Notes under the pieces: generated by a model
The model's database searches: none
What the model saw: only the letters and a program-made list of their open reading frames with translations
Told to the model about the DNA's origin: nothing
Assembly (NCBI GenBank): GCA_030272155.1
Contig: CP126204.1
Coordinates: 1,789,501 to 1,853,500, forward strand
DNA from: Tetradesmus obliquus
Lineage: Eukaryota; Chlorophyta; Chlorophyceae; Sphaeropleales; Scenedesmaceae
DNA length: 64,000 bases
Direction: 5' to 3'
Shown: in pieces, positions 1-64,000 of the stretch
How the letters are laid out: each line of letters begins with the position of its first letter
Numbering within the stretch: the stretch's first letter is position 1
Position numbers and translations under genes: made by a program

Positions 1-131
1 TCAAAAGGAATCATGTGAGTGGTACACCAACAGCCCCTTCAACGAACACCAGCAGCACAAACTCGCTGTGCGCTTTTGTCGCACCAGCAGTTTTTGTTAA
101 GCATAGCACCCCAACGCACAATGCGGCGCAC

Positions 132-551
132 CTCGCTGCGCAGCTGCAGCGATGAGCGCAGGCTTTCGGAGCAATCCGCCCAGTCAACGCAACAGCGCTT
201 GAACATTGAATTAAGATGCAGTGCTCTTGCTGCGCCGCGGTGTAAGATGTCGCAACACCAGCAGATGTTTCACACCATCTTCAAACACAGAAGTTATCTG
301 CTGCCGTACCTCGCTGCGCAGCTGCAGTGATCAGCGCAGGCTCTTGGAGTCATCGCCCAATGACGCAACAACAGCAGTGCTCAAGATCTAAACAGCACGC
401 AGCGCACTTCGGCTCTTTTGACACCAAACCGATTGCAGCAACACCAACAGCCCCCTCAACCAACACAAGCAGCACAAACGCGCTGTGCGCTTTTGTTGCA
501 CCAACAGACTCTAACTATATGCATAGCACCCTGACACACAATGCGGCGCAC
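132..551 (-). repeat. Copies of RAD1 exon 2 3' end with donor site
   Basis: Two copies of the last ~48 nt of exon 2 plus the downstream intron lie at about 310-357 and 132-180. The GT positions (plus-strand AC) fall near 551, 309 and 131. Intron sequence containing gcatagcacc and cacaatgcggcgcacctcg recurs with the copies, so the repeat unit spans the exon-intron border. The copies carry base changes relative to the working exon. Confidence 0.8.
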
Positions 552-1298
552 CTCGCTGCGCAGCTGCAGTGATGAGCGCAGGCTCTTGGAGTCGTCCGCC
601 CAGTGCAGCTCCACCCCCTCAGGGGCAAGCACCACCGTGCACGCCTGCAGCAGCAGCAGCAGCAGCAGCAGCAGCCGGCTGACCAAGGCTCGCGGTTGCT
701 GCATGTAGCAGCAGTGGCTGCTCAGTGCTGCCAGAGAATGCGGCTTCACCGTCCTCTTCTCCTGTACCGACTTAATCTTTTCATGCTGTTCGGTGTGCCC
801 TGCCGCCCACCCCGCTACTAGCCTAGGAGGCACTCGAAGCTATTTGGCAGCACCAACCCCCCACCCATCCTGCTTCGTGCCCAGCTGCTCTGCATGGCCT
901 ACCTGCAACCTGATTGGCCATTTCCTGCAAGCCGCCCACCTGCTTGGCGCTGATCTTCATGGCTTGCAGCAGCGTGGCGAGCCTTAATCATAGACAGCAA
1001 TGACGAGCAGAATCATGCGGCCAGCGTGCCCACCTGCTTTGCGCTGATCTTCATGGCTTGCAGCAGCGTGGTGAGCCATAGCAATACACAGCAATGACAC
1101 GGGCCATAGACATAGACAGCAATGGCCCCGCGATGCAGGAGCATGAGGCAAGCCGCCCACCTGCTTTGCGCTGATCTTCATGGCTTGCAGCAGCGTGGTG
1201 AGCGAGCGGATGTTGGACAGCGTGAGGTGCACTGGCGGCAGCTGCTGCTCCTCCTCCTCGTGTTCCTGCTCCTGCTCATCATTGCTGTCTATGTCCAT
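552..1298 (-). CDS. RAD1: RAD1-type 9-1-1 checkpoint clamp subunit, 5' part
   Basis: RAD1 is a subunit of the PCNA-like 9-1-1 clamp that loads at damaged DNA in the nucleus. Model: exon 1 complement(1161..1298), 46 codons, and exon 2 complement(552..644), 31 codons, both phase 0. The protein starts MDIDSNDEQEQE, has an acidic stretch, then the strand-helix segment LTLSNIRSLTTLLQAMKIS, followed by CTVVLAPEGVELHWADDSK. This order matches the start of RAD1 (conserved N-x-R-x-L-x-x-[IL]-L-x-A, then a segment like ATxNGIKVTVEDAK). The rest lies beyond the left edge. The acceptor of exon 2 sits directly after a CTG tract (plus-strand CAG at 648-672). Extra copies of both exon ends are listed separately. 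Family assignment is from memory of RAD1; another PCNA-fold clamp protein is less likely. Confidence 0.7.
930..1080 (-). repeat. Copies of RAD1 exon 1 3' end with donor site
   Basis: Two copies of the ~48-nt end of exon 1 (encoding TTLLQAMKISAKQ) followed by the donor gtgggc lie near 1028-1076 and 938-983. The more distal copy has a C for A change (KISAKQ to KISAKQ-like, tttgcg to ttggcg). They lie in the intron between exons 1 and 2. Confidence 0.8.
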
Positions 1299-63200: not shown

Positions 63201-63988
63201 CAGCTTAGCAGCGGCTTCGCTGCTGACAACAGCCAACATGGCAGCAGGAACCTGCAGGGCAGTCTCATGTGCACGCGCGTACTCAGTAGAAGGCACGCGC
63301 ATGCTTATCCAGATGCTCACCCAGATGTGCATGCCATTGAAATTACATGCGCATGTTCAGCCACAAAGAGATGGCAATGCGCTTGACCCACCTGGTTGGG
63401 TGCCACAGTCACGCCCAGCTTCTCCCCGAGTGCCGCCAGCAGAGAGTCCACAGGCAGCGCCCTGCAGCCCACATCCTGGCTTTGTATAAGTTCATGCTTT
63501 TACATCCTGCAACTGCTTGCTCTGGCTGCCTTTTACACCCAGCCAAACCTAACGAGCTGCTGCTGCTGCTGCCCGCCCTGAGGCCCCCAGACACACAGCA
63601 CTTTCAAGCGATCACCAGCACCAGCATGAACAGGCACAGAACAACCAGACAACTTGTGTTACAAACCCACCTGGTTGGGTGCCACAGTCACGCCCAGCTT
63701 CTCCCCCAGGGCCGCCAGCAGGGAATCCACCGGAAGCCCTGCAGCCCACATCCTGCAACAGTGCTTGCCCTGGCTGGTTTTGACACCCATCTGCAGTTGG
63801 CATGCTGCTGCTGCTGCCCGTCCTGAGCCCCCAACACCACAACACCTCCAAGCTGGCACCTCGAGCAACACAAGAAGTCACACCCAAAGGACTAGAAAAT
63901 ACAGTGCGCTTGACCCACCTGGTTGGGTGCCACAGCCACGCCCAGCTTCTCCCCCAGGGCCGCAACAAAAGAATCGACCGGAAGAGCC
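60300..63988 (-). CDS. Type II metacaspase, C-terminal half
   Basis: Type II metacaspases are Ca-dependent Arg/Lys-specific cysteine proteases. Exons in transcript order: complement(63392..63461) or the equivalent complement(63919..63988), then complement(62882..63001), complement(62063..62227), complement(61499..61610), complement(61061..61157), complement(60300..60411). Segments: VDSLLAALGEKLGVTVAPNQ, FGSDASAKLGPLIQKF (linker region; compare FGEDAS in plants), a Gly-rich stretch, then the p10-side GRGLLITGCQAEETSADACP, AFGALTNALTTTVNQF, and the C-terminal FAQNPCLECDAANADAPFVL. These match the GxLLSGCQxDxTSAD and QxPGLxC...PF signatures. The p20 domain with the catalytic His and Cys lies beyond the right edge. 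CTG tracts precede the last two acceptors. Confidence 0.85.
61383..62005 (-). repeat. Copies of metacaspase exon ends (GCQAEET and SADVAQQ regions)
   Basis: Copies: complement(61383..61433), end of the GCQAEETSAD exon, with TGA-containing change; complement(61675..61744), start of that exon (LPLAGAKPSPDVQLPPGRG); complement(61951..62005), end of the preceding exon (FSLALEMLGSADVAQQ). Confidence 0.9.
62540..62881 (-). repeat. Copies of metacaspase exon 62882-63001 end
   Basis: A long near-identical copy (LIQKFQGALDAAGGAEALAAQ with donor) lies at about 62612-62685, and a decayed one near 62755-62790. Confidence 0.88.
63072..63988 (-). repeat. Copies of metacaspase exon starts and of the VDSLLAALGEKL exon
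   Basis: The start of the ARAAMVAAFGSDAS exon is repeated near 63072-63125 and 63200-63252 (more diverged). The whole 70-nt VDSLLAALGEKLGVTVAPNQ exon occurs three times: 63392-63461, 63671-63738 (68 nt, frameshifted) and 63919-63988 (70 nt, intact, some residue changes). Confidence 0.88.
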
Positions 63989-64000
63989 CTACAGCCCACA

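What the first reader, a model, noticed from the sequence alone, without database searches (positions are those of the whole stretch)
1..64000. Pervasive tandem copying of exon ends together with splice sites
In RAD1, LepA, the coiled-coil gene, the MYND gene, DEG1 and the metacaspase, exon ends recur in extra tandem copies that include the splice site and adjoining intron. Polarity is consistent: exon-start copies with AG lie upstream of the working exon, exon-end copies with GT lie downstream. I count well over 50 copies in 64 kb. They explain much of the intron length and mean a splice site is often offered several times in a row. The tandem-duplication model of intron gain predicts such structures, but this density in unrelated genes is not something I know as described. 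Possible causes are replication or repair events favoured at exon-intron borders, or a splicing-coupled process; possible effects are decoy splicing or staged exon turnover.
Basis: partly seen in the sequence, partly recalled or inferred. Interest (0 to 1): 0.92.

Follow-up and report, generated by a model that had tools for sequence, protein, structure and literature searches.

The report
Intronic echo arrays of exon ends
In the green alga Tetradesmus obliquus many introns carry rows of half-copies of the neighbouring exon's end, splice site included, which most likely arose by small tandem duplications that genes can tolerate and whose exon halves, unlike the intron DNA between them, stay close to the working exon, likely because they are repeatedly recopied from it.

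Summary
The window lies in a 104.66 Mb assembly, Tetradesmus obliquus by its LepA protein (100% identity). At score >=34 the window has 41 half-exon copies of correct polarity, 1 of wrong polarity, 2 interior, 11 whole and 0 inverted. Copies occur at 36 of 123 splice borders here and 44 of 393 in 250 kb elsewhere. Polarity follows from tandem duplication across a coding/non-coding border: only the copy still joined to its exon works. A stop-codon end is copied too, without a splice site (UBL5), which argues against a splicing-coupled cause. One result does not fit duplicate-and-decay: between two non-working copies the exon half diverges less than the adjoining spacer in 12 of 12 arrays (0.060 against 0.189 substitutions per site, 0.33 against 3.90 gaps per 100), and exon and spacer histories disagree in the two longest arrays; neutral simulation gives nearly equal rates. 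Copy-specific changes look near-neutral (40 syn, 62 non, 3 stop), so I favour exon-limited gene conversion over selection on the copies. Arrays span 46% of LepA and 40% of DEG1 intron length. No second strain and no RNA data were examined.

The parts
3578..12673 (+). LepA (EF4/GUF1) gene, 12 working exons: 3578-3694, 4486-4572, 5093-5155, 5588-5735, 6222-6376, 6859-7032, 7929-8114, 8722-8853, 10101-10353, 10756-10876, 11694-11853, 12458-12673 (the N-terminal exon or exons were not placed)
   Evidence: product 100% identical over 603 aa to annotated T. obliquus OEZ86_008468
3356..3502 (+). two copies of the start of the first placed LepA exon (3356-3391, 3468-3502), each after AG, upstream of the working exon
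   Evidence: TRF array 3339-3613
5797..5879 (+). copy of the end of LepA exon 4, followed by gtgggc
6622..6686 (+). copy of the start of LepA exon 6, 0.97 identical over 65 nt; intron side at the level of unrelated flanks
7156..7278 (+). copy of the last 123 nt of LepA exon 6, followed by gtgagc
7309..7875 (+). five copies of the start of LepA exon 7 (7309, 7433, 7557, 7681, 7805), at a 124-bp step
8205..8400 (+). two copies of the end of LepA exon 7 (8205-8273, 8342-8400)
8942..9816 (+). array of seven copies of the end of LepA exon 8, each followed by GT
10632..10676 (+). copy of the start of LepA exon 10, 45 of 45 nt identical; intron side at the level of unrelated flanks
10932..11043 (+). 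two copies of the end of LepA exon 10
11241..11588 (+). three copies of the start of LepA exon 11 (11241, 11394, 11547)
11912..12216 (+). copies of the end of LepA exon 11 (11912-11965, 12024-12077; 12157-12216 weaker and 5 nt short of the boundary)
12282..12360 (+). copy of the start of LepA exon 12
40038..40700 (+). UBL5/HUB1-like ubiquitin-fold gene, two exons
40761..41008 (+). three copies of the last 35-36 coding nt of UBL5 and the stop region, downstream of the gene (40761, 40858, 40969); no splice site involved; a fourth, weaker match at 41024-41122
50577..56852 (+). DEG1-type protease gene (trypsin-like + PDZ), 8 working exons: 50577-51010, 51487-51560, 52451-52578, 53346-53441, 54127-54265, 54706-54927, 56211-56380, 56772-56852
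52648..53109 (+). four copies of the end of DEG1 exon 3
53631..53810 (+). three copies of the end of DEG1 exon 4; 72-bp unit, 99% matches by TRF
55067..55428 (+). two copies of the end of DEG1 exon 6 (about 250-bp step)
55589..56124 (+). three copies of the start of DEG1 exon 7
97..1298 (-).
60114..64000 (-). minus-strand gene with copies of exon ends and starts, including a 74-nt copy 0.99 identical (62612-62686 and 62881-62955); model from my HMM, no Pfam match

Best explanation
Introns here contain rows of half-exon copies that include the splice site; they most likely arise by small tandem duplications across coding/non-coding borders, which genes would tolerate because one intact border remains, and their exon halves are likely recopied again and again from the working exon while the intron DNA between them decays. 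Step 1 (shown in part): a unit of exon end plus splice site plus intron start, or intron end plus splice site plus exon start, is duplicated in tandem; successive copies lie at a median of 136 bp, most often 110-130 bp. Step 2 (inferred): the protein is unharmed if splicing keeps using the copy joined to its exon, so copies land in the intron with fixed polarity; duplications inside exons are lost. Step 3 (shown): the copies carry one splice site only and change near-neutrally on their own branches. Step 4 (pattern shown, process inferred): the exon half plus the few bases of splice signal stays close to the working exon, whereas the rest of the unit diverges about three times faster and gathers about twelve times more gaps; exon and spacer histories disagree. 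Gene conversion limited to the exon segment explains this best. Step 5 (inferred): repeated rounds lengthen introns.
For: Polarity in the window at score >=34: 41 right, 1 wrong, 0 inverted, 2 interior, 11 whole. Spacers next to successive copies are homologous in 46 of 87 tests (p<0.01; by z>2.5, 60% against 3.8% of controls), so units held intron DNA. A stop-codon end is copied without a splice site. No second splice site is enriched at the inner breakpoint of 60 donor-side copies (p=0.42) or of 34 acceptor-side copies. Copy-specific changes are 40 syn, 62 non, 3 stop, against 26 syn, 3 non private to the working exon; 1 of 36 amino-acid changes in LepA copies matches a residue seen in orthologues. 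Exon and flank identity are uncoupled between working exon and copy: r=0.10 over 99 copies, against 0.77 in a neutral simulation. Copy-copy pairs: exon 0.060, spacer 0.189 substitutions per site, 12 of 12 arrays, 43 of 71 pairs usable; working-copy pairs: 0.090 and 0.192, 27 of 32 arrays, 47 of 94 pairs. Exon-spacer correlation of distances is -0.27 and 0.01 in the two longest arrays; without recombination the simulated mean is 0.75 for equal rates and 0.61 and 0.60 for a slow exon half, where 0.5% and 3.5% of runs fall as low. Mismatches are clustered, p=0.003.
Against: I had no DNA of a second strain or species, so conversion was not seen directly. A rise of divergence at the edge of the splice signal also fits selection on exon half plus splice site. 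Copy-specific changes are somewhat richer in synonymous changes than random (0.38 against 0.248, p=0.003; 20 of 55 in LepA, DEG1 and ABC1K, p=0.06). Between copies, exon and flank identity do correlate (r=0.48 over 71 pairs). Spacers of neighbouring copies are themselves similar enough for conversion, so conversion must favour the exon part. 41 of 87 spacer pairs show no homology at p<0.01, including 10 of 17 of the most alike exon copies. The discordance test rests on two arrays of seven units with few informative sites. Most gene models besides LepA and DEG1 come from my own HMM, and copies within an array are not independent. Borders exceed the tolerance-only expectation, so some border preference may exist. 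Stop-border copies were found at 0 of 16 stops outside the window by exon queries. The 110-130 bp step is unexplained.
Confidence: 0.6

Rival explanations
1. Plain tandem duplication followed by neutral decay of every copy; the pattern is only survivorship plus slower change of the working exon.
For: Explains polarity, junction inclusion and near-neutral copy-specific changes; pairs inside exons are fewer than under circular shifts (0 against 2.6 in the window, 4 against 9.9 elsewhere).
Against: Simulation through the same search gives r=0.77 between exon and flank identity and flank identity 0.93 for the best copies; observed 0.10 and 0.70. Non-working pairs should decay equally in both halves; they do not in 12 of 12 arrays.
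Confidence: 0.15
2. The exon half and splice site of the copies are under selection, for example as decoy or buffering splice sites that tune splicing.
For: Divergence rises at the edge of the splice signal; AG kept in 31 of 34 copies; few gaps in the exon half; small synonymous excess in copy-specific changes.
Against: GT kept in 48 of 60, about what exon identity predicts; exon bases far from the junction are conserved too; a stop-codon end is copied; copy-specific changes are far less synonymous than those of the working exon; exon and spacer histories disagree more than a slow exon half alone gives (0.5% and 3.5% of runs).
Confidence: 0.15
3. A splicing-coupled or border-directed mutational process, for example RNA- or cDNA-templated copying, makes or refreshes junction copies.
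For: Exon-limited similarity with an edge at the junction is what a spliced template would leave; borders exceed the tolerance-only expectation.
Against: About half of the spacers are duplicated with the copy; a spliced template would not restore the first intron bases, yet these stay similar, though the splice consensus alone could do this; a stop-codon end is copied.
Confidence: 0.08
4. Copies are joins between diverged haplotypes or hybrid parents, so exon halves differ by synonymous changes and introns differ strongly from birth.
For: Variants shared by several copies are 22 synonymous to 5 non-synonymous; exon halves nearly gapless, spacers gappy.
Against: The same pattern arises if copies are snapshots of an evolving working exon; introns at this synonymous distance would not usually be unalignable (inference).
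Confidence: 0.05
5. Assembly artefact.
For: Tandem repeats can mislead assemblers.
Against: Most copies differ from each other by several per cent or by indels, and copies occur on three contigs of a 17-contig assembly; no reads were available here.
Confidence: 0.02

Closest known systems
Tandem genomic duplication across an intron-exon border in the potato RdRp gene (PMC4974935; abstract and Results section read)
   Same: A direct tandem duplication that crosses the intron-exon border, carries the splice site, putative branch site and polypyrimidine tract of the parent intron, and leaves copies that differ by point changes.
   Different: One event in one gene, which created a new spliced intron using a cryptic donor. 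Here there are arrays in many genes, no enriched complementary splice site, and no new intron shown.
[quoted passage not shown] Drosophila cases in PMC2891723 (abstract read)
   Same: Small tandem duplication as the raw material of intron evolution.
   Different: There the duplicated segment lies in an exon, and the new intron begins with an exon-start copy and ends with an exon-end copy (my derivation from the model). Here exon-end copies with GT follow the exon and exon-start copies with AG precede it.
Arrays of tandem duplicated exons, as in Dscam (PMC3236188; start of abstract and passages seen)
   Same: Tandem exon copies separated by introns of about 100-200 bp.
   Different: Whole exons used in a mutually exclusive way; that paper found no evidence of gene conversion between them. 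Here half exons with one splice site, exon parts homogenised.
Small tandem duplications from fill-in of staggered breaks (PMC8355091; passages seen)
   Same: A general route to small tandem duplications that needs no long homology.
   Different: Shown in mammalian cells with overhangs of about 43-54 bp; units here are longer and the process in this alga is untested.
Concerted evolution of tandem repeats by gene conversion (recalled general knowledge)
   Same: Copies stay alike while unconstrained flanks diverge.
   Different: Here the homogenised part is the exon half of a non-functional intronic copy, and the boundary lies near the splice signal.

Membership tests
Tandem duplication across an exon-intron border (potato RdRp type) | direct repeat in tandem that contains a splice junction | tested here: met
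   41 half copies of right polarity, 1 wrong, 0 inverted in the window
Tandem duplication across an exon-intron border (potato RdRp type) | intron part included in the duplicated unit | tested here: met
   46 of 87 adjacent spacers homologous at p<0.01; z>2.5 in 60%, controls 3.8%; the other 41 not resolved
Tandem duplication across an exon-intron border (potato RdRp type) | a new spliced intron results | not testable with these tools
   no RNA data
AGGT intron-gain model | intron begins with a copy of the next exon's start and ends with a copy of the previous exon's end | tested here: not met
   copies are of the opposite arrangement: 41 right-polarity half copies in the window at score >=34, exon-start downstream 0, exon-end upstream 1
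Mutually exclusive or cassette exon arrays | each copy has both an acceptor and a donor | tested here: not met
   no enrichment at inner breakpoints: 60 donor-side copies p=0.42; 34 acceptor-side copies score below control. 11 whole-exon hits in the window were not tested for use
Introners | related sequences inserted in many genes | tested here: inconclusive
   a 601-base LepA array query matched only its own locus in the whole genome, but only best candidates are scored; terminal repeats and target-site duplications not tested
Concerted evolution by gene conversion | exon and flank histories disagree | tested here: met
   r -0.27 and 0.01 in two arrays; same-tree simulation with a slow exon half reaches this in 0.5% and 3.5% of runs; only two arrays long enough
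Concerted evolution by gene conversion | paralogous copies more alike within a species than between species | not tested
   no DNA of a second strain or species was in hand; metagenome scans were capped at 0 and I did not scan the viral or prokaryote collections

The most novel reading that the evidence does not exclude
In this alga working exons continually rewrite their own intronic half-copies: exon-limited concerted evolution, perhaps templated by spliced cDNA, keeps arrays of echoed exon ends fresh up to the splice signal, and this copying across borders is a main engine of intron growth in the lineage.
Probability: 0.25. Interest if true: 0.87.

Novelty: new variant of a known kind. Interest (0 to 1): 0.7.

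Why it matters
Duplication across an exon-intron border is described in the potato paper as a single event (PMC4974935). Here it recurs in many unrelated genes and its arrays span 40-46% of the intron length of two of them, which would offer a concrete route to long introns; T. obliquus introns are reported as 462 bp on average, against 230-302 bp in the other four algae of one comparison (PMC5966456, passages seen). The unequal decay of exon and intron halves gives a natural test of how short tandem repeats exchange sequence inside a gene. Repeated half exons with good splice sites also mislead gene prediction: my own gene finder built copies into the ABC1-kinase model.

Tried and rejected
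Splicing-coupled or border-directed origin: not needed; a stop-codon end is copied and polarity follows from duplication geometry. Cassette or mutually exclusive exons: no second splice site enriched at inner breakpoints. Coding function of copies: amino-acid changes in LepA copies match an orthologue residue in 1 of 36 cases and copy-specific changes are near-neutral. My first reading of the synonymous excess (74 syn, 39 non in 25 LepA copies) as coding constraint was withdrawn once shared changes were separated from copy-specific ones; single-copy arrays, which cannot be polarised, give 91 syn, 71 non, 4 stop. Random templated insertion: against it speak the polarity and the absence of inverted copies in the window. 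Introner-type element: no second site for a LepA array query (best candidates only).

Failed or limited steps: two HMM trainings drifted, into CAG repeats and zero-length exons, before the one used. Exon queries at score 24 were noisy: 756 hits, 246 of them inverted, so thresholds of 26-34 were used. The four-gamete test found 2 incompatible site pairs among 3 informative sites in the LepA exon 8 array; for the ABC1K array the first run was out of register, and the re-registered run gave 3 incompatible pairs, all with one site, which recurrent mutation could explain. My first no-recombination control (mean r 0.75) used equal rates in both halves; the fairer slow-exon control is weaker. My note calls LepA stop-end copies clear; the LepA stop-side matches are weak and miss the boundary, and I rest the stop argument on UBL5. 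The codon display has two ABC1K rows, the third ABC1K array and part of the DEG1 exon 7 rows out of frame. Dropped before counts: three gene models of low complexity or repeat protein (C1 starts 15584, 59390, 123653; from then on); exons under 30 nt or over 300 nt (on); models under 200 (window) or 300 coding nt; and, the ABC1K rows whose query exon was itself a copy.
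Full report
What the window is. It is G000:C14:1789501-1853500 of a 104.66 Mb, 17-contig assembly. A LepA protein that I put together exon by exon from 3578-12673 is 100% identical over 603 aa to the annotated Tetradesmus obliquus protein OEZ86_008468, so I take the organism to be T. obliquus and the choice of working LepA exons to be right. 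DEG1 (50577-56852) gives trypsin-like and PDZ domains and UBL5 (40038-40700) a ubiquitin fold by Pfam. The models of the RAD1-like, MYND-type, coiled-coil and minus-strand genes gave no Pfam match. Gene models other than LepA and DEG1 come from an HMM that I wrote and trained on the data; it is good enough for statistics, not for single claims.

The observation. Self-alignment finds 46 pairs of score >=40 in the window's 64 kb, 42 in 200 kb of C1 and 2 in 50 kb of C9, and none at that score in shuffled C1 and window sequence. Pairs overlap splice borders about twice as often as under circular shifts, in the window and in the other contigs. Exon-only queries in the window show the polarity clearly: exon-end copies lie downstream, exon-start copies upstream, and inverted copies are absent at score >=30. 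Elsewhere the raw picture is noisier: at score >=34, 26 exon-end downstream and 6 exon-start upstream copies, 43 whole, 9 exon-end upstream, 2 exon-start downstream, 12 interior, 9 inverted. Without three low-complexity or repeat-protein models and the ABC1-kinase gene, whose copies the HMM took for exons, it is 9 and 6, with 2 whole, 1 wrong, 1 interior and 0 inverted. False positives are few: 2 hits in 561 control searches. In 250 kb elsewhere, 44 of 393 splice borders and 11 of 27 genes carry a copy; in the window 36 of 123 and 7 of 9. Some of the C1 borders belong to ABC1K copies taken for exons, so that figure is approximate.

Why the polarity. A tandem duplication that crosses a border leaves one intact border joined to its exon and puts the other copy in the intron, downstream for exon ends and upstream for exon starts. 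Polarity therefore needs no special cause. A stop-codon end behaves the same way: UBL5 has three downstream copies that start at the same coding base, give or take one, and run past the stop region. Such cases are few: 2 of 8 stop borders in the window and 0 of 16 elsewhere by exon queries, with two more by pair alignment. If units of the observed sizes are placed at random in genes and exon-only ones are discarded, borders should make up 0.38 (window) and 0.48 (elsewhere) of survivors, or 0.55 and 0.65 with a twofold detection advantage; observed 36 of 45 and 45 of 55 pairs that are border or intron-only. The remaining excess may come from the slow change of exon halves described below, or from a modest border preference. 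Pairs in intergenic DNA are fewer than shifts predict (10 against 29.6 summed over both samples), which I do not explain.

Tandem origin. Spacers next to successive copies share homology in 46 of 87 tests at p<0.01; by the z>2.5 measure 60% of real and 3.8% of unrelated spacer pairs do. Successive copies lie at a median of 136 bp, with most steps at 110-130 bp. The reason for this step is unknown.

Half exons, not cassettes. At the inner breakpoint no complementary splice site is enriched. GT is kept in 48 of 60 and AG in 31 of 34 copies; one of the 12 without GT is the UBL5 stop end.

The part that plain decay does not explain. Over 99 copies, exon identity and the identity of the adjoining 60 intron bases are uncoupled (r=0.10): 18 exon copies at 0.96-1.00 have flank identity 0.70, with unrelated flanks near 0.60. 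Neutral duplicates sent through the same search give r=0.77 and 0.93. Between copies the two identities do correlate (r=0.48), but the exon half is the more alike in 69 of 71 pairs. The test free of the working exon is between two non-working copies: where one local alignment runs at least 30 nt into the spacer (43 of 71 pairs, 12 arrays), the exon half has 0.060 substitutions per site and 0.33 gaps per 100, the spacer 0.189 and 3.90, and the spacer is the more diverged in 12 of 12 arrays; simulated neutral pairs show nearly equal values. In working-copy pairs the rate steps up after intron base 6 on the donor side and base 3 on the acceptor side; in copy-copy pairs it rises over bases 6-12, with one low bin at 12-16. 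In the two longest arrays exon distances do not follow spacer distances (r -0.27 and 0.01). Simulation without recombination gives a mean of 0.75 for equal rates and 0.61 and 0.60 when the exon half is made slow, where 0.5% and 3.5% of runs fall as low. The LepA exon 8 array has two incompatible site pairs. Mismatches in exon halves are clustered (p=0.003).

What keeps exon halves alike. In 21 arrays of two or more copies, changes private to one copy are 40 synonymous, 62 non-synonymous and 3 stop, near the random 25/72/3%; changes private to the working exon are 26 to 3; changes shared by some copies are 22 to 5. So copies do not look coding, and shared variants look like snapshots of the working exon at different times. 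Amino-acid changes in LepA copies match an orthologue residue in 1 of 36 cases, with about 11% expected at random. Conversion from the working exon, limited to the segment that stays homologous because the working exon is constrained, accounts for slow exon halves, near-neutral private changes, snapshots and discordant histories. Selection on exon half plus splice site stays a main rival; the slight synonymous excess (0.38 against 0.248) and the edge at the splice signal speak for it.

Against what is known. A single duplication across an intron-exon border in potato has the same geometry (PMC4974935, Results read). The AGGT model places the copies the other way round. Tandem duplicated Dscam exons are whole exons without detected conversion (PMC3236188, passages seen). 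In the rows listed by my ten literature searches I saw no title or abstract start on arrays of half exons in introns or on exon-limited homogenisation of them. Several searches listed only part of their hits (20 of 43, 12 of 776, 10 of 108, 10 of 73, 10 of 34), and the library holds only open-licence PMC papers. I saw passages of three papers, one section of a fourth and the abstract of a fifth.

Noticed in passing
40761-41008: Copies of the coding end of UBL5 with the stop region, downstream of the gene: border copying without a splice site.
   Followed up: yes
G000:C1:1645038-1646156 (L017): An ABC1 atypical-kinase gene carries six to seven downstream copies of the exon end that encodes its HGDPHPGN loop; my gene finder included several of them as exons in frame.
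   Followed up: partly
26642-27088: A perfect (TG) run of 223 units.
   Followed up: no
46377-46780 and 43676-44093: Nearly perfect minisatellites: 31-bp unit x13 (99%) and 21-bp unit x20 (97%).
   Followed up: no
14021-14120, 24564-24663, 46090-46200: A dispersed sequence recurs near 14.0, 24.6 and 46.1 kb, at 24.6 kb just after what looks like the end of a retroelement reading frame (by eye only).
   Followed up: no
window and C1: Successive copies are spaced mostly 110-130 bp apart, with few below 100 bp; no cause found.
   Followed up: partly
window, C1 and C9: Duplicate pairs of period 60-800 are fewer in intergenic DNA than circular shifts predict (10 against 29.6).
   Followed up: no
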